A stretch of DNA of 64,000 nt. Source: a virus. Location: positions 1 through 64,000 of the IMG/VR virus record IMGVR_UViG_3300037245_004243, one strand, 5' to 3'. The position numbers were made by a program, and so were the translations under genes. Below, piece by piece: positions 3,162-53,281 of this stretch (its first letter is position 1; every line of letters starts with the position of its first letter). Below the pieces are notes generated by a model. The model was not told where the DNA came from, did not search any database, and was given only the letters and a program-made list of their open reading frames with translations.

Positions 3162-3235
3162 ACGAATTTTCTCCAGGTAGCTCAGAAAGCGTGATCGCGG
3201 ACAGCGTGATCGCAGACGAAGTTTACCGGGGAAAG

Positions 3236-3671: not shown

Positions 3672-4047
3672 ATCAGAATTTACCCACCGCGCAAAACTTG
3701 ACTTTAACGCCATCACAGAAGAAGAGTGGCTCGCCATTAATACGGTTTACACCTGGCACCCGATGATTTCCGATGTTAACGGCAAAAAAGAAATTGCCGC
3801 CCTTTATAACCGGGGAGGCATTGGCATCATAAAGAATATGCTGCTAACTGCCCTGGAGCTTGAAACCCATTACAGCAATCTCCAAGCATATTTGGTTGAG
3901 AGGGAAAACCTCCAGGAAGTACAAGCCGAAGAGAAAGAAAGAATGGAACGTCGGCATGCCAATGAAAAGCAAGATATCAGAATCAAAAACCTGAAATCAA
4001 ATGACCGCATCCGAGAGATCGAAAACTCCTTTAAATTGAGGGTATAA
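3664..4047 (+). CDS. hypothetical protein with C-terminal coiled coil
   Basis: 127 residues. AGGAGAG lies before the ATG. The N-terminal two thirds are mixed; residues about 80-120 are a highly charged Glu/Lys/Arg heptad-like helix. Two bases separate it from the next ORF, so the genes are co-transcribed. No family recognised. Confidence 0.75.
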   Translation: MNKSEFTHRAKLDFNAITEEEWLAINTVYTWHPMISDVNGKKEIAALYNRGGIGIIKNMLLTALELETHYSNLQAYLVERENLQEVQAEEKERMERRHANEKQDIRIKNLKSNDRIREIENSFKLRV

Positions 4048-4049
4048 TT

Positions 4050-4499
4050 ATGAAACAACTTTGGGATATTTGGCCGGAATTGACTGTTTACAATAAGGAC
4101 TCCAGAACGACCTTTATCCAGACGCCGGACGAAAAATGGGGAACTTATTTCTCTATCTGGCGCCGGGCCATGATTGAGGACAAGGAAACCGATTGTCCGT
4201 GTCCTATGCCGCAAGGTCACCTGATGTTTAAAGATATCAAAGCACCAACCTTAACCGATCAAAAACAATCATCATTACCATTTGGTAAATTATCTAATGG
4301 TAATCCTATACGCACAAAAGCCACATTATACGATACAAGAAAATTATCAGAATCAGAATTTAAAGATTTGTGTCTACAATATCCGGAGCAAGGTTTTAGA
4401 CGGGGTTATTATTTGACACAAAAACCCAATATAAAATATATGGAAAAAATGGTGCTGGAAAAATCGATAAAAGAAGGGGTAAAACATGGGAAAACCTAA
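4050..4499 (+). CDS. hypothetical protein (149 aa)
   Basis: Starts MKQLWDIWPELTVY. Contains CPCPMPQG near residue 49. The first part aligns with no family I recognise. Overlaps the next gene by 14 bases. Confidence 0.7.
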   Translation: MKQLWDIWPELTVYNKDSRTTFIQTPDEKWGTYFSIWRRAMIEDKETDCPCPMPQGHLMFKDIKAPTLTDQKQSSLPFGKLSNGNPIRTKATLYDTRKLSESEFKDLCLQYPEQGFRRGYYLTQKPNIKYMEKMVLEKSIKEGVKHGKT

Positions 4500-39768: not shown

Positions 39769-42700
39769 TTATTTCCACCAGTGCACCGTGCCGGACACCA
39801 CGGTAAAATTTGTGAATCTTACGGTTGCTGTTGGTTGTGAATCAACATTTGCTACATGTAATGAAATTCGGCCATGTTTGTCATCAAAATCAGTGAATGT
39901 ATATGCGCCCTGTGTTACCCAACCGCTGCCGATATCATAATATTCTGTGATTATATTATTAACCTTTTTAATTCTATACTTTATCCCGGTCAATGTTGAA
40001 TCAGCATCGGTGTCCGTCGTTTTCCATGCTGTATCTTCAATAGCTAAAGATTGAAATTCATGTGCGCCGCCGCCATACCTGCGCCTGGCAATAACACCCG
40101 TGTCCCATAACGGATCATCGGGTTGTCCGATTTGATCTTGAAAAGTCAAAGACACGCACGCCATCCAAGAATTTGTGGCTGGACCTGCCGGAATATCTAA
40201 TTCAATTATTACTTCAAAATCTTCCGTGCTATCCAATTCGAAATTACTTAAAACGCCCTGGCGCTCGAGAGAAACATCACCCGAATCAACCGTGCATTGC
40301 AAATATCCACCGGTCTGTGTAACGTTTGCGGCCTGGCCGATTACTGTCCACCGGTCGGTATTTATTTCCGCGCCGGAAAAATCATCATCAGGTATAATAA
40401 CATCGTATGTCATTAAAGTATCGAACAAGGTATAATAAGTTGCTTTTAACCACGCCGCCGAACGATCGATATCAGAAAGCCTTATTTCCCCAAGTAGACC
40501 CACCATCCTTAAATCAGGAGTTGACCTTCCAGCAGCCGTAAGGGGCACATCAGTATTATCTATGTCGCCTGTATGAGCCGTCGGGCCACTTGCCAAATTC
40601 AATGCGCCGTCAACATATGTCCTAAGATCGATTTTATTGTATACACCAGCAACGTATTGCCAATCTGTGCCAATAATCGAATCGTTACTATGGCAGTTGT
40701 ATAAAGTGGTCGAAGTAAATACGCCAAATGTTATTCTGTCGTTAACACCATTTAAAAATAGATAGTAATTCCTGTTGCCGGGGTCTATATCCCGCGCCAT
40801 GTACATTGTACTGTTGGGAGCACCGGCATCACGTTTTCCAAGTGCCTCCAGGGTAAGTTTGCCAGTAATATCAAGGGAAACGTTATCACCGTAATTCATC
40901 CATTGGGTATTAAAATCCAGTGCCTTTGCACTTTTCACACCATCGACTAAGTCATTAGAAGCCATGCCGTCTTGTGGAGTTCCATCATTACCGAAAGATG
41001 TCGAATCAAGCATACAACCCGCGCCGCCTGAAGGGTCTTGCGCCATATGATGGACTGCTTTAAAATTGCTATCCCATACCGCTTGCGCCGGGGTGTCGCC
41101 GATATCACCGACATAAATATTATCGACAATACTTGCATCATAACGGAAATTAAGTATTGTATCTGATGCCGCCAGAATCGATGGTATTTTTACCCATAAC
41201 GATATTTGTTCATTAATCGAGTCAAAATTTTCAATTTCTATCTTGCATTGGGTACCATCGGCAGTCGTGACCGCTAACTTTTTTCTGTTTGGATGACCGT
41301 TTGGCCATTCAATAGAATCAGCAGTAACAAGCAAATCATCAACAAACCCATAATATGTCCCGGTCGTTTCCTGTTCAAAAAGTAGCTCAATAACAGCGTC
41401 TTCGGTATTGGAATCTTCTACTTCCAAACCGGCTGTCGAACCATTCCATTTCCAATCATCTGTATCCCAATAATAAACCTTGACACTTCCAGAAATCCGT
41501 GTTATTTTAAATTGCCCTATTGAATCATCCATATTGTCCCAAACGAAACCCGATTCAAGCCCATAAGCATAATAACCATTATTACCCGACTTACGGGATC
41601 GCGAAATAAACCCTATTGGTGCATCAGCCAGATTGCGGATTGCAAGCCGGGGCATGTAATGTTGTGCAGAAGTTGGGTCTGAGGACGCAATATTAAAATT
41701 CATTTGGACTTCAAAATCCCCGGAAAGAACAAATTTTGAATCGATAATTGTTTGACGATATCCTGAATTTTGATCAAAATTAAAATATAACGTATTATTT
41801 TGAATTTCTAACTCGCCAGACACGCCACTTATAAAAGTCCAAATTTCACCGTCTTCAACTAAATCACCATCAGCGCCGGTAAAATCGTCACCGGTCCATG
41901 CCAACGCATCAAATACTTCAGTTGTATTCCCGCTTGTAATACCTGAAGCCGTTGAAAGGTTGATCATAACCGGAAAGTCGGTAAGGTCTTCATCAATCTG
42001 TGAACTATCAATCGTAAGTTCAATTTGATTGGCAAAACCCTGGGTATAAGCCGCCGTATTAAAAGTCATCAGGGTATCAAAGCAAGTATGATAAGTTGCC
42101 TTTGCCCAAGCGGCAGACCGCTGTGCTTTTGAATACCGACATTCGAAAACCTTGCCGGTCATAAAATATTCTGATGAATGAAAGACTTGACCATGACCTA
42201 TCTTCAAATCATCTTCAGAATCATCAATACCATTTAAACAGGGTGTTGCAGCGTCAACTCTTGACCAGTCGGTCGGATTTGTATCATTCCAAAAGATATC
42301 AACATCGCTACCATCGCCAGGATAATAAAACCCGAAATAATTTTTTGCATCCACCGCATAATCAGGAACATCTTTTTTATAGTAAGTATAAATACTTAAT
42401 GATTGTTTAAATCCGAAAAGTGGTTCACCACTTCCGTTAACCTGGAATCCCCATCCATTTATATTAGCATCCATCTTATTAAAAATATTTTGATTACTTG
42501 ATGGGGTACCAGTCAATTTAAATACTGTTTCAACTGAAAAATCAGTAAGTAAACTCAAAGCGGCATTATCGACTATATATGCCTTTTCATTTGACCCACC
42601 AAAATTATATGCTATTCCATCTTCATCAATGACCAAGTCGCTGGACTCCATATTAACCACAGTCATATCATGATCATAGGAAGTCGAATCTTTTAATGTT

Positions 42701-45700
42701 CCTAAACTTGGGTCTTGGGCCATGTGGTAAACTGCAACAAAGTCGTCATCCCATACCGCTTGCGCAGAGGCCTCGCCGGTATCACCAACATTAGGATTGT
42801 CGGCATGATCGGAGTCAAAATATAGAAATAATTTAGTGTCGGTCCCCGCCAGAATTTCAGGCACCTTTACCCACAATTCAGCTTTTTCATTTGCATTATC
42901 CCAATGGATGATTTCCACCGGGCATTCACTTAAACCATCAGCACGGGTAACCGCTATCTTTTTACGGTTTGGATGTGTGCCTGGTGCCCATATAAGCGTG
43001 CCGGAATTTACAACAAAATTGTCGATAGTGCCCTGAACGTCTTCACCGCTTTCTTGTTCCCAATAAAACCTAAAATAAACGTCTTCCGTTGAACCCGGTC
43101 CATTATTTGCGACAATTATTCCCGCCGTATTCCCGTCCCATTCCCATTGACCGCCAGCAGTATCAGTCCAATAAAATGATCGTATCACACCGCTAATCCG
43201 AGTTAAACGTAATTTTCCGAAAGCATCAGCAGGGCCTTTATAAGCGCCCCCTTCATTTAAACCATATGCACGGTACTGATTAAGCGACGCACTTCGCACC
43301 CTTGCAATTTGGGCAATATTAACGTCATCGGAAACACGCATAGCTTGAAAAGATGGACAATAATGCGTGCCAGGTGGTTGTGTAAACTGATCGGCGGTAA
43401 AGTCCACGGATACATCGAAATCGCCCGTTGCCTGAAATTTGCCTATAATACGCGCTATTATTTGTGGACTTGCAATAGCCGACGCATCAAATTCGAATTT
43501 ATTATTCTGAATAGAAGTGACAGAATCGTCGTCTTCCACATCCCACAAATCAGTATCCGGTGACGCGCCGTCTTCACCGGTAAAATCGTCACCGGTATAT
43601 GCCAACGCATCAAATACTTCCGTTATATCGCCGTTTCCAATAGCTGAATCAGAAAGATTTATCATAACCGGAAAGTCGGTCAAGTCTTCATCAATATTTG
43701 ACTTATCGATTACAAGTTCAATCCTATTTGCGTAATCGAGAGCGCTGAGCGCATATGTTATCAGCGTATCAAAAAATGTATGATAAGTTGCTTTTAACCA
43801 CGCCGCCGAACGAATCATTTTTGATATTCTTATTTCACCGATTAGACCGTCAAATTCCCTATCACCACCATCCCTAATGCCTATTTTTGTGGTCGCTGGA
43901 GCATCAGAATCCCAAGTGCCAGAAGGTGCGGTCGATTCAACTTGATTACTGCCATCACCATTAAGATAAACTATTGGGTCATTATTAATTGAACTTTTAT
44001 CATGGGTAAACGCGCCATGATACCAGGTGTTTCCATCGGTTATTAATGCATCAGAATTATACCATTGACCGACGCCGCCGCTTGAATCCCTAACAACAAC
44101 AAGGCCGCTTGAATGTACAAGAAATGACCAACCATTGTTTGGTGAAACTGTTTTGTCTACAATTCGCCCGGAATTGTTTTGACCAAGATTATCAGCTTTA
44201 AATACCGATTCAACAGTCATTAAAGCTATATCATCAAGAATGGCGCCACTTCCAGCACTGAAGTATTCATCTGATCCGCTTAAATTCACCGCTTTTATAC
44301 TTTTTAGGCCATCAACTAAGTCTGGAGTGCCTGTGGCATCTGCATCCTGATTGTTGCCAGTACTTTCAGGAATTAAAATTGCATCTGTCATATGGTAAAC
44401 AGTAACAAAGTCAGAATCCCATACCGCTTGCGCCGGGGTGTCGCCGATATCACCAATATAATCTGTATTGTCCGCTTTGGTCGAATCATACAATAAATTT
44501 AAAACTGTATCGGATGCCGCCAATACAGATGGAATTTTTGCATGTAAAGAAGCCGTTTTGGTTGCCGCATTCCAATTGGCTATTTCAACATTATATTCGG
44601 TGTTCCTGCTCGAATTTTGAACCGAAATCTTTTTGCGGTTTGGGTCGGTTGCTGCTGGCCAAATTACATTACCCACCACAACCGCAAAATTGCTTAATTC
44701 AAAAGTCACGTTCACGGCATTCTGCTTACTAATCATGAAATTGACGTGACCATCTTCATTATCGAAATCGGTAAATGAATAGGTTTGTGATAACACCCAA
44801 CCGGACCCGGCATCATAATAGCAACTTATATCATTTCCTATTTTTACCTGTCTAAGTTTACCGGACATGGTCGTATTGACATCGGTATCGGTCGTTTTAA
44901 ATGAACCATCTTCAGCCGCTAATGATTGCCAAACATGACCACCATTACCTGAATTATAACTCCTTCGACTAAAAACTAATGTATCCCAAGCGCCGCCATA
45001 AGGGTCACCGGTTTGTTCTTTAAAATTTACCAACATATCAGCATAAAATGCATTTGTAGAAGGGGCAGTCATGGTAAAATCAACCGTTATTTCATAATCT
45101 TGACTTTGATCAAGTCGAAATTTACTATAACAACCATGTATTTCATTATCTGCACCGCCCGATAGCGCCCTGACCGTTAAGACATTATCTGATACAAACA
45201 CATTGCTGGCAATCCCAAATTTTGTCCAATTATCTAAATTAGAAAAATCATCGCCGGTCCATGCCAGGTCATCAAATAGCGCCGTTAAATCAGCATCATT
45301 AATTCCTGAAGCCGCTGAAAGGTTGATCATAACCGGGAAGTCGGTCAAGTCTTCATCAATCTGTGAACTATCAATCGTTAAAATAATTGGGTTATTAACA
45401 CTTTCAAAAACACTAATGCCCTTGTCAATAGCACTGGTTGCAGCGGTTACTATCGATGGTGAAGACACAAATTCAATTTCTTCTTGGGTACCAATATCAC
45501 TGATCGTGCCGGATACTATCGATGCGCTCGAGCCAAATTCCCTTTGTGCATTAGCATCAGATGAAATATCGGTCCCGATGGAAGGCGAAGATACAAAATA
45601 GGAAGATATTTCAATTATCGCCGTTATATCCGAAACGATATCAGCCTGGGCCGCAAAAGCCCAACCATAGTCAATTGTGCTACTTAAATATCCGGTCTGT

Positions 45701-46416
45701 ATATCAGCCTGGGATGCAAAAATGCGCTCAGCGAGCCCAACGCTAATGATCGAAGTTTGAATGGCCGGGGAAGATGTGGTCCCAACATAATATTCTATAT
45801 TTGGATCGGTAATATCCGAAACGATATCGGCACCGGATGCAAAACGTCCACCGAATATCACATCGCCGGTAATCGAGAATGTAATTGAAGGAGCAGAGAT
45901 AAAATGATATTGGCGCTCAAAATCCGAGCTTATATCCGAGCTAATCGAAGCCGCTGAAACGAAAAGATTTATTTTATAGATATCACCATCGATATCGGAG
46001 GAGATATCGGCCTGTGCCGCCAGCTCGCGCCGCGCATCAGCATCAGAAACAATCGCCGCGCGAATCACAGGTGAAGACACAAATAATTTTTCAGCTCGAA
46101 CGGTAATTTCAGCAATTGTTGAAACTATTGAAGCCGCTGAAACGAAAAGATTTGATTTATAAATATCGGTGTCGGCGCCGGACCCAATAATAGCACTCGA
46201 AGCAAAGTGTCGTTCAGCATTACCCTTGCCAACAATTCCCGTCACGATATTAGGCCGGGAATGAAAGTCTGGAGTTCCCAAACGACTGCTCGAGTTGTCC
46301 CAGGTTATCCTGGCCAAAACCAGAAAGGTACCGGGGCCACACCAGGAAGTTAAATCCTCGGTGATTTCAGTCTCTATGGCATCCCGTTTATAGCTGTTTT
46401 CAGGTATTATTCGCAT
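39769..46416 (-). CDS. giant modular fibre/adhesin with DUF2341 and LamG-like domains (2215 aa)
   Basis: Residues 1 to about 335 are a run of roughly 24-residue repeats (FVSAASIVSDI, AAQADISSDI, FVSSPSIGTDI). Then three long units each open with DEDLTDFPVMINLS (DUF2341 start) and contain a beta-sandwich segment, a second DUF2341 part (NRKKI ... VEI), and a LamG/concanavalin-like domain. A final sandwich copy (SGAEINTDRWTVIGQAANV) ends the protein. Such domains bind glycans, so this is likely a tail fibre, neck decoration or receptor-binding protein. Size and position between the gp15-like and gp16-like genes support a virion role. No enzyme motif seen. Confidence 0.8.
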   Translation of the reverse strand: MRIIPENSYKRDAIETEITEDLTSWCGPGTFLVLARITWDNSSSRLGTPDFHSRPNIVTGIVGKGNAERHFASSAIIGSGADTDIYKSNLFVSAASIVSTIAEITVRAEKLFVSSPVIRAAIVSDADARRELAAQADISSDIDGDIYKINLFVSAASISSDISSDFERQYHFISAPSITFSITGDVIFGGRFASGADIVSDITDPNIEYYVGTTSSPAIQTSIISVGLAERIFASQADIQTGYLSSTIDYGWAFAAQADIVSDITAIIEISSYFVSSPSIGTDISSDANAQREFGSSASIVSGTISDIGTQEEIEFVSSPSIVTAATSAIDKGISVFESVNNPIILTIDSSQIDEDLTDFPVMINLSAASGINDADLTALFDDLAWTGDDFSNLDNWTKFGIASNVFVSDNVLTVRALSGGADNEIHGCYSKFRLDQSQDYEITVDFTMTAPSTNAFYADMLVNFKEQTGDPYGGAWDTLVFSRRSYNSGNGGHVWQSLAAEDGSFKTTDTDVNTTMSGKLRQVKIGNDISCYYDAGSGWVLSQTYSFTDFDNEDGHVNFMISKQNAVNVTFELSNFAVVVGNVIWPAATDPNRKKISVQNSSRNTEYNVEIANWNAATKTASLHAKIPSVLAASDTVLNLLYDSTKADNTDYIGDIGDTPAQAVWDSDFVTVYHMTDAILIPESTGNNQDADATGTPDLVDGLKSIKAVNLSGSDEYFSAGSGAILDDIALMTVESVFKADNLGQNNSGRIVDKTVSPNNGWSFLVHSSGLVVVRDSSGGVGQWYNSDALITDGNTWYHGAFTHDKSSINNDPIVYLNGDGSNQVESTAPSGTWDSDAPATTKIGIRDGGDREFDGLIGEIRISKMIRSAAWLKATYHTFFDTLITYALSALDYANRIELVIDKSNIDEDLTDFPVMINLSDSAIGNGDITEVFDALAYTGDDFTGEDGASPDTDLWDVEDDDSVTSIQNNKFEFDASAIASPQIIARIIGKFQATGDFDVSVDFTADQFTQPPGTHYCPSFQAMRVSDDVNIAQIARVRSASLNQYRAYGLNEGGAYKGPADAFGKLRLTRISGVIRSFYWTDTAGGQWEWDGNTAGIIVANNGPGSTEDVYFRFYWEQESGEDVQGTIDNFVVNSGTLIWAPGTHPNRKKIAVTRADGLSECPVEIIHWDNANEKAELWVKVPEILAGTDTKLFLYFDSDHADNPNVGDTGEASAQAVWDDDFVAVYHMAQDPSLGTLKDSTSYDHDMTVVNMESSDLVIDEDGIAYNFGGSNEKAYIVDNAALSLLTDFSVETVFKLTGTPSSNQNIFNKMDANINGWGFQVNGSGEPLFGFKQSLSIYTYYKKDVPDYAVDAKNYFGFYYPGDGSDVDIFWNDTNPTDWSRVDAATPCLNGIDDSEDDLKIGHGQVFHSSEYFMTGKVFECRYSKAQRSAAWAKATYHTCFDTLMTFNTAAYTQGFANQIELTIDSSQIDEDLTDFPVMINLSTASGITSGNTTEVFDALAWTGDDFTGADGDLVEDGEIWTFISGVSGELEIQNNTLYFNFDQNSGYRQTIIDSKFVLSGDFEVQMNFNIASSDPTSAQHYMPRLAIRNLADAPIGFISRSRKSGNNGYYAYGLESGFVWDNMDDSIGQFKITRISGSVKVYYWDTDDWKWNGSTAGLEVEDSNTEDAVIELLFEQETTGTYYGFVDDLLVTADSIEWPNGHPNRKKLAVTTADGTQCKIEIENFDSINEQISLWVKIPSILAASDTILNFRYDASIVDNIYVGDIGDTPAQAVWDSNFKAVHHMAQDPSGGAGCMLDSTSFGNDGTPQDGMASNDLVDGVKSAKALDFNTQWMNYGDNVSLDITGKLTLEALGKRDAGAPNSTMYMARDIDPGNRNYYLFLNGVNDRITFGVFTSTTLYNCHSNDSIIGTDWQYVAGVYNKIDLRTYVDGALNLASGPTAHTGDIDNTDVPLTAAGRSTPDLRMVGLLGEIRLSDIDRSAAWLKATYYTLFDTLMTYDVIIPDDDFSGAEINTDRWTVIGQAANVTQTGGYLQCTVDSGDVSLERQGVLSNFELDSTEDFEVIIELDIPAGPATNSWMACVSLTFQDQIGQPDDPLWDTGVIARRRYGGGAHEFQSLAIEDTAWKTTDTDADSTLTGIKYRIKKVNNIITEYYDIGSGWVTQGAYTFTDFDDKHGRISLHVANVDSQPTATVRFTNFTVVSGTVHWWK

Positions 46417-46421
46417 ACTGT

Positions 46422-46610
46422 CTAACCCTGGTTAATGTCACCAATAATTGTTGTTTGGACCCTGGCAAGAATCCTGAAATCACCCCATTCACATAGCGAA
46501 ATGCAATCAGGGAGTTCAGTTATTTCGGTATCGATGGAATTCCATAGATAATCATCTTCATTTTCGGGCTCGGGGACGATTTCTGTCCATGGGAAAATTT
46601 TTGTTGCCAT
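46422..46610 (-). CDS. small virion-associated protein (62 aa)
   Basis: Begins MATKIFPWTEIVPEPENEDD. The middle (SIDTEITELPDCISLCEWGDFRILARV) resembles residues 13-38 of the giant fibre protein just downstream (AIETEITEDLTSWCGPGTFLVLARI), so it may be a related adaptor. Five bases from that gene. Confidence 0.6.
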   Translation of the reverse strand: MATKIFPWTEIVPEPENEDDYLWNSIDTEITELPDCISLCEWGDFRILARVQTTIIGDINQG

Positions 46611-46612
46611 TA

Positions 46613-46759
46613 TTACCTTTGGATATCGGTTTTGATACCGGTCTGAATATCGGCCTGAACTGAAAATTTTCTAAGCCCGGTCGAAAATGTAATGCCTTTA
46701 CCACCGCCAGAATCAACGGGACGCGATTTAAACGAATTTAAAATTTTTATAGATGCCAT
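46613..46759 (-). CDS. small protein sharing the fibre repeat (48 aa)
   Basis: ORF MASIKILNSF ... with C-terminus SVQADIQTGIKTDIQR, which matches the repeat units of the giant fibre protein (QADIQTG). GGAGAA before the start codon, overlapping the sheath stabiliser stop by one base. Possibly a fibre attachment piece. Confidence 0.55.
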   Translation of the reverse strand: MASIKILNSFKSRPVDSGGGKGITFSTGLRKFSVQADIQTGIKTDIQR

Positions 46760-47789: not shown

Positions 47790-49352
47790 TTAACTCCCCG
47801 ACGCGCCGCTTGATCGTTGAAGGCCGAGAGCGTCATCGTTCTCAGTTTGTCTATCAAGGGGTGTTGCCACTGTATTACTTTGATTTATTTGCATCATATC
47901 ACCCGCCGATTGCTGCTTTTTAAAATCGCGCAATGCCTCTTCATTAGCAATTCTCTGTTTGATACCTTCCTGGCCAACCGCCGAGACTCCTTTTCGCATT
48001 GCCGCGAGATTAACATTTCCTGATTTTATTCGCTCAGCTCGAGCATTTTCATCTGAAATTCTGCCGGCAGATTCTTTCCCCCAATCGAATACTTTACTGA
48101 AAAATCCACCGATTGCGTCCATAGAATTTTTGAATTTATCAATTTCTTGAGTTTTCAAATTCTCCATTTCTGCATCAGTCAAGTCCCAAGTTGCTAACTT
48201 TTTTACCATATCGATTGCGGATACTTCCGATATATCTCCCTTCGCAGCCGCCTCTGATTTTACTTGTTCTTCCTGTGCCAACCTGTCCCTAACCGATCTC
48301 AGCTTTTTTATGATTAAGCCCACGGGATCTTGAAAAAGCATAATGGTATTATCAATGAATTCATCTATTCCTGCGTAAAAATCCTGAACAGCTAAATTTA
48401 AATCAAACCCTAAAGTATTCGTTAAAAGGCCCTGTATACTGGCATTAAATTTTTCTAAAAGGGTGTTGGTTTTCCCGCGCAGACTCTCGATATCTTCCGG
48501 ACTCAGCATACCCATTGTTAAATTACTGAGGGTCTCGTCGATTTTTCCTGCGAGGCCATTTGTTGAGTCATTCCAGATTTCAGAGAAAGAATCCCACGCC
48601 TTACCAATTGCCACCTCAATTTTATCCATTGCACCAACGAGAAATTCCTTGGATATTAAACCGAATGTTAGAGTCGAGGCCATCTTACCAATGCCACTTT
48701 TAAATTTATCAATTACGGATGCGTCTTCACCGGCCTCTTTCCAGCCCTTCATAAAATGGAATCCAGCAAGCCCAACCAGTGCCGGGAAAAATATACCTTT
48801 CGCCAACCCTTTAACGCCGCCCAGGAGACCCTTTATTCCTTTGCCAGCCATCAAGCCGCCAAATAGACCTCCCATGCCTCCGCCAAAAAAGCTCCTCGAT
48901 GATTTCGAATCGGCCTTTGCCAAAGCAGCAGAATCATCCTCTTTATCAACGAGGTCTTCAAGAAGGGTATTCGTGCGCTTATTGATATTTAAGTCGGCCT
49001 CGCGCTCGGATTCCTTTAGAAATTCATTATGCTCATCTTTGGCAGCAAATCGATTGTTCATTTTTAATTCATCGACAACATCATCAATTGCTGATACTTG
49101 GTCATCAGAGTGATCTTGCATTTGACCAAATGCCGATTTAATCGAGTCACCGGTTGCTTTGATAGAATTTTTTAATTGTGTATTAACCATACTCGAGAAA
49201 TTGCCCATAATTTCCTGGACATTTTTATTTAGTGCCGCCGTCTCACTTGGGGAGAGGTGATCAGATAGACCTTTCTCGCCGCCGCCATCATCCATATGGG
49301 CAAGGTGCCGGTTAATATCTTTTAAAATTCTTGTTTCTGTTGAATCAGCCAT
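47790..49352 (-). CDS. tape-measure-like tail/baseplate hub protein (520 aa)
   Basis: Helical throughout with a Gly-rich hydrophobic centre (residues about 150-200: FFGGGMGGLFGGLMAGKG ... FFPALVGLAGFHF), long charged helices on both sides and a Gln/Asn-rich tail, which is the usual look of a tail length determinant (T4 gp29 role). It directly follows the gp26-like chaperone gene and its frameshift extension, as tape-measure genes do. Sequence similarity to gp29 is not evident by eye. Confidence 0.55.
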   Translation of the reverse strand: MADSTETRILKDINRHLAHMDDGGGEKGLSDHLSPSETAALNKNVQEIMGNFSSMVNTQLKNSIKATGDSIKSAFGQMQDHSDDQVSAIDDVVDELKMNNRFAAKDEHNEFLKESEREADLNINKRTNTLLEDLVDKEDDSAALAKADSKSSRSFFGGGMGGLFGGLMAGKGIKGLLGGVKGLAKGIFFPALVGLAGFHFMKGWKEAGEDASVIDKFKSGIGKMASTLTFGLISKEFLVGAMDKIEVAIGKAWDSFSEIWNDSTNGLAGKIDETLSNLTMGMLSPEDIESLRGKTNTLLEKFNASIQGLLTNTLGFDLNLAVQDFYAGIDEFIDNTIMLFQDPVGLIIKKLRSVRDRLAQEEQVKSEAAAKGDISEVSAIDMVKKLATWDLTDAEMENLKTQEIDKFKNSMDAIGGFFSKVFDWGKESAGRISDENARAERIKSGNVNLAAMRKGVSAVGQEGIKQRIANEEALRDFKKQQSAGDMMQINQSNTVATPLDRQTENDDALGLQRSSGASGS

Positions 49353-49539
49353 TTTTATCCCGCTGTTGTTTTTCTTCTTCCATTGCTTGCAGTGTTAATG
49401 CCGTAAAAATTTCCATTTCATATGGTAATAACTTCATTAATTCGGCATGCTTATAATTGCCATACCGGGTCATATTAAAGACTTCTTTATAATAATTTAC
49501 TATAGTTTTATATTTCCCAATCAATTTAAGTATTTTAAA
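49345..49539 (-). CDS. -1 frame extension of the gp26-like gene (frameshift product)
   Basis: In the -1 frame after a T TTA AAA heptamer (minus strand 49539 to 49533) the reading continues for about 63 codons: KLIGKYKTIVNYYKEVFNM, AELMKLLPYEMEIFTAL, then a Glu-rich end and a TGA overlapping the tape-measure start. The LLPYEMEIFTAL-EEEK end is typical of the extended forms of tail assembly chaperones. An internal ATG (49473) could give a separate 42-residue protein instead. Confidence 0.6.
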   Translation of the reverse strand, partial: FKILKLIGKYKTIVNYYKEVFNMTRYGNYKHAELMKLLPYEMEIFTALTLQAMEEEKQQRDKNG

Positions 49540-50246
49540 AAGTCACGTATAATATACTGTTCCTTATTCCCGCATCCAATTTGCTGACCTTCATTGGCTT
49601 TCTTTTCGCATTCGATATCCAATTTCAATGTCATTTTGACCAAGGTAGCCGACACCGCAAATATCTTTTTAAGAATCGGGAAGGTCAAACTGATTTTTTT
49701 CTTGAGGGTCTCCGGAGTGAATTCGGTATAGATATCATCTTTCCAGAAAACTTTATTAATCGAATGTACCGCCGTCTCAAGCATCAAATCGGTTTCGGTT
49801 TTGATGTCCTCAACTTTATACAAAAACCCCATTTTTACCGGGACAATTTCGAACGATAAATTATCATCAATTTTGCAGATCGCTTTTACATTTTCTGCAT
49901 TATCGGTGACTATTTTATCCTCTATATTGACGGATAATTCTATCGGGTTTTCACACTTTTTACATTTGGTTGTGATATCGAGGATCTCACCTTTAGATTT
50001 GCTCCGCAGGTTAACCGCGATAAATATGAATTCCATTGCGGTAAGTTTATCAAAATCGACGCTGTCTCCGCAGACCCCAATCAATTTTATATAATTGTTG
50101 ACAATTGCTGAGACGTCGTTTGAATCAAGTGCCGTTAAAATACTACGCTCCTGATCGACGGTGTATGGCACAAATTTGAATTCAGTATTTTGAACAGGTA
50201 AAACGATTGTGTGAACAGGTAAAACATTAATCTCGGGTAAATCCAT
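49521..50246 (-). CDS. 26: baseplate hub assembly protein/chaperone, T4 gp26-like
   Basis: 241 aa. Features of the gp26 family: N-terminal PVQNTEFKFVPYTVDQERSI, CGDSVDFDKLTAMEFIFIAV with LRSKSKGE, and a CKKCENP pair at about residue 94. Helps assemble the baseplate hub and tape measure. AAGGAGAATGAG precedes the ATG. The slippery site near its end would yield a longer fusion, in the manner of lambda G/GT chaperones. Confidence 0.7.
   Translation of the reverse strand: MDLPEINVLPVHTIVLPVQNTEFKFVPYTVDQERSILTALDSNDVSAIVNNYIKLIGVCGDSVDFDKLTAMEFIFIAVNLRSKSKGEILDITTKCKKCENPIELSVNIEDKIVTDNAENVKAICKIDDNLSFEIVPVKMGFLYKVEDIKTETDLMLETAVHSINKVFWKDDIYTEFTPETLKKKISLTFPILKKIFAVSATLVKMTLKLDIECEKKANEGQQIGCGNKEQYIIRDFLKYLN
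49533..49539 (-). promoter_or_regulatory. slippery heptamer T TTA AAA for -1 frameshifting
   Basis: In frame with the upstream gene as TTT TTA AAA, four codons before its stop; matches X XXY YYZ exactly. Confidence 0.6.
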
Positions 50247-50272: not shown

Positions 50273-51052
50273 TTAAAATGGGCTCCAGCTTTTAAAAGCC
50301 GGATTGGCCACACCGGTCCCGCCTTGGCCATTGGCAAAAATCTTTTTACTATTAGCGGCAAGTGCCTCCTCACTTTCTGCAAATGATGATCCGCCACTTC
50401 CACCGAAAACGGTTTTTATACTGGAAGCAGGGATTTTATTAGATAAGGTTTCAATACCTTCTTTTAGAGCATCGATCCCTGTCCCGATGGTACCCTGGGC
50501 GAGATCAAAAGCAACATCTTTTACATCCGCGACGCTAATTCCTTCATCAAACTCATAAATAATATCATCGTATCGGAAAGAGGTCGAGAGGGTCATAAGT
50601 TGATCGTTTGCATCCGCCGCCAATGCGATATTCTCTATGTTGACCGGGAATGCATCTAAGATGGTACACTTTACCCGCATTAACTGCTTTCGATTCCATA
50701 GTTCAATCTCGATATTGCCGGAATATTCATCCTTATAATTGAAGGTACGCGAGCCATCATTCATTACCAGTTTTCGCCAGTCATTAAAAAACTTGATGAC
50801 TTTTAGGCCATCATCAACGAAAAATTCGAACGCTATTGGATCATAATCAACAGAACTTACATAATGCCGGGGCAGGTTGTTATATTGTACAGAAGTGGTG
50901 TTATAGGTCATAAACGGGAAAGTTGCGGATCTGGTTAAAAACCCGAACTCTTTTGCCCCAAAAAGGTGACCAGTGAAAGTTACTTGATAGAGATTTGGCC
51001 TAAGAAAATCTGAAAACGATGCTTTCAGATTTTCCAGAAACATGGTAGCCAT
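50273..51052 (-). CDS. tail tube-like protein (gp19 paralogue, candidate gp54)
   Basis: First 170 residues follow the tube-protein pattern (FLRPNLYQVTFTG, FLTRSATFPFMTYNTTSV, IELWNRKQLMRVKCTILDAFPVNI), then a Ser/Gly/Ala-rich C-terminal extension (about 180-259). T4 gp54, the tube initiator, is also a larger gp19 relative, and this gene sits between gp19 and hub genes, so it may be the initiator. Confidence 0.7.
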   Translation of the reverse strand: MATMFLENLKASFSDFLRPNLYQVTFTGHLFGAKEFGFLTRSATFPFMTYNTTSVQYNNLPRHYVSSVDYDPIAFEFFVDDGLKVIKFFNDWRKLVMNDGSRTFNYKDEYSGNIEIELWNRKQLMRVKCTILDAFPVNIENIALAADANDQLMTLSTSFRYDDIIYEFDEGISVADVKDVAFDLAQGTIGTGIDALKEGIETLSNKIPASSIKTVFGGSGGSSFAESEEALAANSKKIFANGQGGTGVANPAFKSWSPF

Positions 51053-51064
51053 AAATTACCTCTT

Positions 51065-51559
51065 TTAGAAAATGCGTGTCCAATAATCGAAACTGAAAGT
51101 AATTACATATTCGGCCAGGGTGTCATTGGTCTCATAGGATAAATCGACCGGGGCGATAGATGATGGCCACATACCAATGAAATTATATTCAGCGATTTCA
51201 TTATCGTTGGTGTCCAATGCAATGATCGTGCCAATGCGTTTATAAAGTGCTGAATCCAGGCCGATAGCTGCTTCATTTGCTTTGATGGTCTGCATCCACT
51301 CTTCGATGGCCGTGCGGACTGCAAAATCGGTATCCATAATGGCGGTCACCGACAGGTCTTCATAGGTCACATCACCGGCAAGTTTGGCTTTCATGCCAAG
51401 ATATGGCGCCTCAACGATGCCGATATTTTTTCCTGGGAGCTGAGCCGCTTTGCACAAGAAAACGAACTTTTCAGGCAATCCCATCACTTCCATTTTATAT
51501 AGGTTTGGCCGGTAACCAGCTTTCAATGCGGCCTTAAAATCTTCAATCCTGATTCCCAT
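51065..51559 (-). CDS. 19: tail tube protein, T4 gp19-like
   Basis: 164 aa, same size as T4 gp19 (163). YRPNLYKMEVMGLPEKFVFL, KAAQLPGKNIGIVEAPYLGM, WMQTIKANE and the ending YVITFSFDYW are gp19 signatures. Forms the inner tube of the contractile tail. ATAAGGAGATTCAA before the ATG, with a GTAAATT element upstream. Confidence 0.92.
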   Translation of the reverse strand: MGIRIEDFKAALKAGYRPNLYKMEVMGLPEKFVFLCKAAQLPGKNIGIVEAPYLGMKAKLAGDVTYEDLSVTAIMDTDFAVRTAIEEWMQTIKANEAAIGLDSALYKRIGTIIALDTNDNEIAEYNFIGMWPSSIAPVDLSYETNDTLAEYVITFSFDYWTRIF

Positions 51560-51616: not shown

Positions 51617-53281
51617 TTATGCTGATTTGCTGATTGTTTCCGAGAACTCAACACCCGATTTCACGTTGATGAATTCGAGAACGATATACTCAGCAGATAC
51701 TTCTGGCTGGATGAAAATCCGCGCCCTGAATTCAGTTCTTGCCTTAACTGCGGCAGTGTTTACATTCGGGCCGACTTGGACTTCAAAATTTTCAATGCCC
51801 TCTTTACCCTGGACATCCCGCAGGAATGGAGTAACCAAACCCTTGAATTGTCGCTGAGTAAATGCGGTATTTTTCTCAAACATAAAATATTTGGAAGCAG
51901 TCGCGATAGCCTTTTCCAATACGATGAACAACCATCTGATATCCAGTCGGTCAAAGTAGGAAGGCCGGGTCAGCAACGTTTTCTGGCCAAGCAACACCGG
52001 ACCATCAGCGCTATCAACCAAAAGCGGATTGATGCCGTCTTTATACAGTAAATCCCGGTAAGGTTTGCCAGGATTGATGGCAAATTTGATGGTGTTTTTA
52101 ATAATACCGCGATTATAGCCAGCGCCAGCGATCCAAAGTTCTCGGACCTGCCCGGTATTGGCCATGACACCCGCACAGTCGGCAGACACTGGGAGCCAGC
52201 GAAACACACCATTGTAAGTGTCTTCCTGATATTTCCAGTTGCCAAAAAGCCCTGCATAGGAAGTGCTTCGGCTCAATTCATTTTTGCGGTAATCGACGAT
52301 ATCGGCAACCGCTGCTGAAAGGGACGTTTTGCCGACGATATCGGCCTGGGGAGGCGTAAAATAACCGACCATATCTTTCCGGACTTCCAAAAGATTGTCG
52401 ATTAAGTATTGCTGAATGGTGCTATTGGTCCAGGCGCCGTCGATAATCATATTGACATCCACTTCCTCTGCATTTTCGAATAAATCGAATCCTGCCTGGA
52501 TCTCGCTGTTGCCGGGTGTACCATTCACACCGCCGCTCATCAAATGTGCCTCGAAAGATGCAACATCGATTGCATTGCCGACATCATTATATCCCAGGAT
52601 GTAAGCTGAATTCTGGAATAAATAATCATTGATGTACGTGTTTACGCCATCAACTTTGTTGCCGGGAGTTGTCGAAACAATCCAGCGCTCCACGATTTCA
52701 TAATCGCCATTTTTATCCAGGGCCAGAACACAAATGGCCACCTCATTGGCAATTGGGATAAATTCAAATTGATCAACAAATTTGATGCCAGTATCGACCA
52801 GTGCGGTAGCGAAATCGCTGTCATTGGCAACGGCCACTTTGAGTGTATTGCCGAACACACCGGGGTATTTTGCCAGAAGGTGAATTTTATCTGTTCCACC
52901 GGCAAAACTTGGTGTATGCTGCTCATAAGCATCGTCGTTCAAAAGCAATGTCACATTTTCGATAGGATCAACTTCATTATCGGTATCTTGCAACATATAT
53001 CCTGCGTTTTTCGAAGTGGCCTCATCAAGCACTCGGACCATCAGCAACGCACTGGAGTATTGCAGATAATTGAATGCCGAAAACCAACTCAAATAATTGA
53101 CATCATTTGGGACGCCGAAAATATCAAAAAGCTCGGTGTCATTGGTCATCGTAATGCGCTGATTACAAGCGCCCCATTCAAATTCTCCAACCATACCGCA
53201 TATCGTGCTTGAAACCGCAGGGATCGTCAGGGTCAAATCTTTCTCCACAATGGACTGACTTGGTGATAAACTGAATCCCAT
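51617..53281 (-). CDS. 18: tail sheath protein, T4 gp18-like
   Basis: Contractile sheath subunit, 554 aa (T4 659). N-terminal MGFSLSPSQSIVEKDLT, GMVGEFEWGACNQRI; C-terminal conserved sheath domain with RLDIRWLFIVLEKAI, FEKNTAFTQRQFKGLVTPFL, and TEFRARIFIQPEVSAEYIVL. AAAGGAGAAAAATT before the ATG; GTAAATA about 47 bases upstream. Located between large terminase and tube genes, as in T4. Confidence 0.94.
   Translation of the reverse strand: MGFSLSPSQSIVEKDLTLTIPAVSSTICGMVGEFEWGACNQRITMTNDTELFDIFGVPNDVNYLSWFSAFNYLQYSSALLMVRVLDEATSKNAGYMLQDTDNEVDPIENVTLLLNDDAYEQHTPSFAGGTDKIHLLAKYPGVFGNTLKVAVANDSDFATALVDTGIKFVDQFEFIPIANEVAICVLALDKNGDYEIVERWIVSTTPGNKVDGVNTYINDYLFQNSAYILGYNDVGNAIDVASFEAHLMSGGVNGTPGNSEIQAGFDLFENAEEVDVNMIIDGAWTNSTIQQYLIDNLLEVRKDMVGYFTPPQADIVGKTSLSAAVADIVDYRKNELSRSTSYAGLFGNWKYQEDTYNGVFRWLPVSADCAGVMANTGQVRELWIAGAGYNRGIIKNTIKFAINPGKPYRDLLYKDGINPLLVDSADGPVLLGQKTLLTRPSYFDRLDIRWLFIVLEKAIATASKYFMFEKNTAFTQRQFKGLVTPFLRDVQGKEGIENFEVQVGPNVNTAAVKARTEFRARIFIQPEVSAEYIVLEFINVKSGVEFSETISKSA

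What the first reader, a model, noticed from the sequence alone, without database searches (positions are those of the whole stretch)
49345..50246. Probable programmed -1 frameshift in the gp26-like hub chaperone gene
T TTA AAA is in frame four codons before the stop, and the -1 frame stays open for about 63 codons right up to the tape-measure-like gene, ending LLPYEMEIFTALTLQAMEEE. This mirrors lambda G/GT in a T4-type hub gene. T4 uses separate genes 26 and 51.
Basis: partly seen in the sequence, partly recalled or inferred. Interest (0 to 1): 0.7.

Follow-up and report, generated by a model that had tools for sequence, protein, structure and literature searches.

The report
Frameshift-fused tail chaperone in T4-like phage
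A contractile-tailed phage very probably makes a short and a long version of its tail-assembly helper protein (T4 gp26 and gp51) from one gene by letting ribosomes occasionally slip back one base, a known phage trick that T4 itself replaced with two separate genes.

Summary
On the minus strand the gp26-like gene (50246-49521, PF12322, 2.3e-20) has T TTA AAA in frame at 49539-49533, and the -1 frame stays open to 49345. It is the only one of 20 large window genes with such a heptamer in its last 11 codons.

The -1 ORF is a homologue of the C-terminus of T4 gp51 (phrog_634, 1.8e-12). T4 gp51 residues 1-201 are themselves a gp26 domain (3.9e-52). A 300-aa gp26-gp51 fusion would therefore be the counterpart of T4 gp51, and gp26 alone the short form, as in lambda G/GT.

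All eight other distinct close relatives keep the -1 ORF (pN/pS 0.30), and its possible starts in the window lack a ribosome-binding site. All 81 non-redundant wider relatives (cyanophages, KVP40, others) carry T TTT TT(C/T/A) at the homologous place, with an SD-like element about 8 nt upstream.

The general kind is already published: Vladimirov et al. 2022 identified T4-like tail assembly chaperones (seen only through citing papers). What seems new is a clade nested among poly-T frameshifters whose slip site is Y-YTA-AAA, without poly-T, SD element or detectable RNA structure. Three of nine members deviate from the perfect heptamer. No expression data exist.

The parts
49521..50246 (-). gp26-like gene, short form (TAC-N / lambda gpG analogue), 241 aa
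   Evidence: PF12322 T4_baseplate 2.3e-20; phrog_150 baseplate hub 2.3e-18; SD -8.7 kcal/mol upstream; AlphaFold pLDDT 91, best-named BFVD matches are gp26-type proteins
49533..49539 (-). candidate slippery heptamer T TTA AAA in the gp26 frame
   Evidence: T TTA AAA in 6 of 9 distinct close relatives (window included), Y-YTA-AAA in all 9, always 19 nt before the end of the stop
49345..49533 (-). -1 frame extension after the slip (62 aa, starting ILKLIGKYKT), gp51 C-terminal domain (T-like part of TAC-NC)
   Evidence: phrog_634 baseplate hub assembly catalyst 1.8e-12; pN/pS 0.30 and no stops in the clade; domain profile aligns with the T4, JSE and KP15 gp51 C-termini from the slip junction on
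49345..49524 (-). the same ORF read mechanically from the TTG that overlaps the gp26 stop; judged not a real start
   Evidence: no SD (dG +1.7 versus -4.1 to -9.3 for the tail genes); codon is TTG, CTG or GTG in relatives, never ATG
47790..49352 (-). tape-measure-like gene, 520 aa; named by position and glycine-rich hydrophobic stretch only
   Evidence: overlaps the end of the -1 ORF by 8 bases; only a weak match to an uncharacterised phrog
50273..51052 (-). second tail-tube-like gene, 259 aa, directly upstream of gp26
   Evidence: phrog_45 tail tube 7e-34
51065..51559 (-). tail tube gene (gp19 type), 164 aa
   Evidence: phrog_45 2.3e-42, PF06841 5.4e-11
51617..53281 (-). tail sheath gene, 554 aa
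   Evidence: phrog_23 7e-90

Best explanation
One gene makes both tail assembly chaperone forms. Most ribosomes stop at the gp26 TGA and give the 241-aa short form. A minority slip one base back on the (T)TTA-AAA codon pair, where tRNA-Leu and tRNA-Lys re-pair on TTT AAA, pass the stop and add the 62-aa gp51 domain, giving a 300-aa gp26-gp51 protein. By analogy with lambda G/GT, the shared part would coat the tape measure protein and the rare gp51 tail would recruit tube subunits. T4 makes the same two proteins from two paralogous genes, 26 and 51. Shown: homology of both parts, conservation of the arrangement, purifying selection on the -1 frame, absence of an initiation signal in the window. 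Inferred: the slippage itself, its site to the base, its efficiency and the assembly role.
For: Heptamer and -1 ORF present and non-random. The -1 ORF is the gp51 C-terminus; T4 gp51 is a full-length gp26 paralogue carrying that tail, and the tail begins at the slip junction in T4, JSE and KP15 gp51. Nine distinct close sequences keep it, pN/pS 0.30 against 0.93 and 1.79 with stops in the other frames. Wider family: 81/81 non-redundant gp26 genes have in-frame T TTT TT(C/T/A), 61 of them 13 nt from the stop end; background 13 in 18,102 codons; synonymous joint probability about 1e-31 if sequences were independent. SD-like element upstream of that heptamer beyond synonymous expectation: -6.19 versus -4.50 +/- 0.17, 0 of 300 shuffles. 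43 of 81 -1 ORFs have no ATG, GTG or TTG before their conserved core. The window's possible starts lack an SD although every tail gene has one. U_UUA_AAA belongs to the Y_YYA_AAR class that Sharma et al. found notably frameshift-prone in E. coli (PMC4066793). The tree places the window clade among poly-T frameshifters.
Against: No expression, ribosome-profiling or mass-spectrometry evidence. The perfect heptamer is missing in 3 of 9 close relatives. No conserved RNA structure or SD stimulator in the window clade. FLK is also present at this place in T4-type gp26 (JSE, KP15), so part of the heptamer's conservation could reflect the peptide. The fold link to a solved tail assembly chaperone is weak (2ob9, probability 0.44, E 1.2).
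Confidence: 0.88

Rival explanations
1. The downstream ORF is a separate small gene, started by termination-reinitiation at the NTG overlapping the gp26 TGA or at an internal ATG.
For: A TTG overlaps the stop (TTGA) in the window and most relatives; public records annotate the equivalent ORF in KVP40 and cyanophages as a separate gene.
Against: No SD at the TTG (+1.7) or the ATG (-1.3) while all tail genes have one. The codon is TTG, CTG or GTG in relatives, never ATG, and is forced to NTG by the TGA itself. In the wider family conserved residues lie upstream of most possible starts; 43 of 81 relatives have no start codon there. The T4 long form carries the tail on a gp26 domain.
Confidence: 0.07
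2. The frame change is made by RNA polymerase slippage on the homopolymer rather than by the ribosome.
For: The homologous site in the wider family is a T-run.
Against: The run is only 6 T in 52 of 81 relatives, in the window it is T5A4 and in L010 and L110 TTCTTAAAA. From general knowledge bacterial polymerases need longer runs. The SD-like element upstream of the heptamer acts on ribosomes, not on RNA polymerase.
Confidence: 0.03
3. gp26 ends at its stop, the -1 ORF is untranslated, and the heptamer is a by-product of an A+T-rich FLK peptide.
For: FLK occurs at the same place in T4-type gp26 of JSE and KP15, where gp51 is a separate gene.
Against: pN/pS 0.30 with no stops over nine diverged sequences and homology to part of T4 gp51 require translation.
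Confidence: 0.01

Closest known systems
Poly-T tail assembly chaperone frameshift of T4-like phages (TAC-N / TAC-NC; Vladimirov, Gautam and Davidson 2022, known here only through PMC10885494 and PMC12846349)
   Same: Same two homologous parts, same -1 direction, same position near the gp26 stop
   Different: Window clade has Y-YTA-AAA instead of T TTT TT(C/T/A), and lacks the SD-like element found upstream of the poly-T site
T4 gp26 and gp51
   Same: Homologous short form and long form (PF12322, phrog_634)
   Different: T4 encodes them in two paralogous genes; its gene 26 has GAG TTC TTT GAG at the site and no slippery heptamer
Lambda G/GT
   Same: Short form plus -1 frameshift long form, gene pair between tail tube and tape measure genes, no independent start for the second part
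   Different: No sequence relation tested or expected; slippery heptamer GGGAAAG in lambda (from general knowledge); virion type differs (siphovirus)

Membership tests
G/GT-type tail assembly chaperone made by -1 programmed frameshifting | Slippery heptamer in the 0 frame shortly before the stop of the first gene | tested here: met
   T TTA AAA at 49539-49533
G/GT-type tail assembly chaperone made by -1 programmed frameshifting | Overlapping -1 ORF conserved as protein and lacking its own initiation signal | tested here: met
   pN/pS 0.30; no SD in the window; 43 of 81 wider relatives without a start codon before the core
G/GT-type tail assembly chaperone made by -1 programmed frameshifting | Lies between tail tube and tape measure genes | tested here: met
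   Tube genes by phrog_45; the tape measure gene is assigned by position and composition only
G/GT-type tail assembly chaperone made by -1 programmed frameshifting | Tail assembly chaperone fold of the short form | tested here: inconclusive
   HK97 chaperone 2ob9 ranks third, probability 0.44, E 1.2
G/GT-type tail assembly chaperone made by -1 programmed frameshifting | Fusion protein made in vivo in a fixed low ratio, absent from virions | not testable with these tools
   needs proteomics or reporters
T4 gp26 / gp51 protein family | gp26 domain (PF12322) in the short form | tested here: met
   2.3e-20, above the curated cut-off
T4 gp26 / gp51 protein family | gp51 C-terminal domain in the extension | tested here: met
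   phrog_634 1.8e-12; junction matches T4, JSE and KP15 gp51
Poly-T frameshift subtype of T4-like chaperones | T TTT TT(C/T/A) heptamer | tested here: not met
   Window has GAC TTT TTA AAA; only L015 and L116 of the clade also keep T TTT TTA
Poly-T frameshift subtype of T4-like chaperones | SD-like element about 8 nt upstream of the slip site | tested here: not met
   Mean dG positive in that interval in the window clade, about -6 in the poly-T group

The most novel reading that the evidence does not exclude
The window clade has replaced the ancestral poly-T slip site and its SD stimulator by a relaxed Y-YTA-AAA site in which A-site tRNA-Lys slippage on A_AAA is the essential step and P-site re-pairing may be imperfect, with no stimulator, giving the low long-to-short ratio that tail assembly needs.
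Probability: 0.35. Interest if true: 0.45.

Novelty: new member of a known kind. Interest (0 to 1): 0.36.

Why it matters
It supports treating the small ORF labelled gp51 or baseplate hub assembly catalyst in cyanophages, KVP40 and relatives as the end of a gp26-gp51 fusion rather than a separate gene. It offers an account of an old puzzle (cyanophage and vibriophage gp51 missing the first ~200 residues, PMC3037559) and points to a gp51 tail in two Aeromonas phages with no gp51 annotated (Ah1, 65). The window clade's non-poly-T site is a natural test of ribosomal slippage versus polymerase slippage.

Tried and rejected
Search of viral contigs with window gp26 alone found nothing; relatives came through the sheath and through alignments. 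RNA folding and RNAalifold gave no conserved structure (z -1.5 to +0.9, 0 consensus pairs). No relative in GTDB genome contigs, so no host lead. Sequence search of solved structures gave nothing relevant. Stop read-through was rejected: the 0 frame meets a TAG seven codons after the TGA and does not encode the gp51 domain. The apparent exception IME-SM1 (T5, gp51 out of the -1 frame) has one base fewer than the 14 other Stenotrophomonas phage records matched, probably a sequencing error. Vladimirov et al. 2022 is not held, so its content is known only through citing papers.

Full report
What is there. The window's minus strand carries a contractile-tail module: terminase-like gene 54961-53339 (named from its sequence only, not searched), sheath 53281-51617, tail tube 51559-51065, second tube-like gene 51052-50273, gp26-like gene 50246-49521, a tape-measure-like gene 49352-47790, an 86-aa ORF and a T4 gp15-like gene 47529-46759. 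The genome is a 129.5-kb IMG/VR virus record. The gp26-like gene ends GAC TTT TTA AAA TAC TTA AAT TGA; T TTA AAA (49539-49533) is in frame, and the -1 frame is open from 49542 to 49345. A heptamer of this class in the last 11 codons occurs in one of 20 large window genes; T TTA AAA there has a chance probability of 0.0076 and the open -1 frame one of 0.0037.

What the two parts are. The 0-frame product matches PF12322 (2.3e-20) and phrog_150. The -1 product matches phrog_634, baseplate hub assembly catalyst, i.e. gp51 (1.8e-12). T4 gp51 residues 1-201 match PF12322 at 3.9e-52 and its C-terminus matches phrog_634, so T4 gp26 and gp51 are paralogues, gp51 being the long form. A profile of the -1 domains aligns with the C-termini of T4, JSE and KP15 gp51 starting at the slip junction (FKLL/FKIL). 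In a tree the T4-type gp26 and gp51 sit together on one side of a branch (99/89), in keeping with one duplication, and the window clade (100/100) lies among the poly-T frameshifters.

Conservation. Relatives were fetched through the sheath, through gp26 alignments and from annotated phages. Nine distinct window-clade sequences, counting the window, all keep the -1 ORF, pN/pS 0.30 with no stops, against 0.93 and 1.79 with many stops in the other frames. The slip site is T TTA AAA in six, C TTA AAA in L010 and L110, C CTA AAA in L018, always 19 nt before the end of the stop. In the wider family 81 of 81 non-redundant gp26 genes have in-frame T TTT TT(C 48, T 29, A 4), 61 at 13 nt and 16 at 10 nt from the stop end, against 13 in 18,102 codons elsewhere in gp26. 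77 of the 78 complete -1 ORFs are 45 aa or longer; the exception is S-SCSM1, where gp51 lies in the other frame.

Mechanism. Upstream of the poly-T heptamer lies an SD-like element (8-mer ending about 7 nt before it, mean dG -6.1). It exceeds synonymous shuffles (-6.19 versus -4.50 +/- 0.17, 0 of 300), so it is not explained by the encoded peptide alone; internal SD elements are known stimulators of bacterial -1 frameshifting (general knowledge, e.g. dnaX). T-runs are 6 nt in 52 of 81. These points favour ribosomal slippage. The window clade has neither the SD element nor a conserved structure, so if it slips it does so on the codon pair alone. Sharma et al. (PMC4066793) found Y_YYA_AAR motifs, which include U_UUA_AAA, to be notable exceptions with high shiftiness in E. 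coli; the A_AAA tetramer was weak there.

Against an independent gene: tail genes of the window have SD energies of -4.1 to -9.3 kcal/mol, the TTG over the stop +1.7 and the next ATG -1.3; 43 of 81 relatives have no start codon between the slip site and the conserved core.

What is known. Sullivan et al. (PMC3037559) noted that cyanophage and vibriophage gp51 lack the first ~200 residues, without mention of frameshifting in the held text. Vladimirov et al. (Virology 2022;566:9-15) identified the tail assembly chaperones of T4-like phages; I could not read it. PRFect (PMC10885494) cites it for T4-like phages carrying a short gene and a longer fusion gene; the Adele paper (PMC12846349) cites it for poly-T slippery sequences in T4-like TAC-N genes. 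The general finding is therefore not new. I did not find the Y-YTA-AAA clade or the SD element described in the papers I could search.

Structure. AlphaFold of window gp26 with 57 relatives gives pLDDT 91. The best BFVD matches that carry a name are baseplate hub or gp26 proteins. PDB matches are not significant; HK97 tail assembly chaperone 2ob9 ranks third with probability 0.44, a hint only.

Verdict. Limits: no expression data; the exact slip unit in this clade is uncertain, since three of nine relatives lack the perfect heptamer; pN/pS and codon statistics treat related sequences as if independent.

Noticed in passing
window 39769-46416, minus strand: A 2215-aa ORF with repeated short units (ASIVSDI-like) and repeated larger modules, next to small ORFs 46422-46610 and 46613-46759 of similar style; possibly a tail fibre or adhesin.
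   Followed up: no
L119 (Klebsiella phage KP15), gp26 3741-4295: KP15 has genes 51, 26 and 25 in tandem, and its gp26 carries T TTA AAG in frame at the homologous FLK although gp51 is a separate long gene.
   Followed up: no
L008, about 170 bases after the gp26 stop: An extra 80-aa ORF (MKTYRQILNEK...) lies between the chaperone and the tape-measure-like gene; in the window an ORF with a similar start (MKTYRDIL) lies after the tape-measure-like gene.
   Followed up: partly
L105 (Stenotrophomonas phage IME-SM1) about 3215-3222: Five T instead of six at the slip site compared with 14 records of related Stenotrophomonas phages; probably a sequencing error that gives a wrong fused C-terminus in the record.
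   Followed up: yes
L004 (Synechococcus phage S-SCSM1) 2494-2698: Same T TTT TTC site but the gp51 ORF lies in the +1/-2 frame; an assembly error or a real -2 shift.
   Followed up: no
L103 (Aeromonas phage Ah1) and L104 (Aeromonas phage 65): No gp51 is annotated, yet a gp51-like -1 ORF follows T TTT TTC at the gp26 end.
   Followed up: partly
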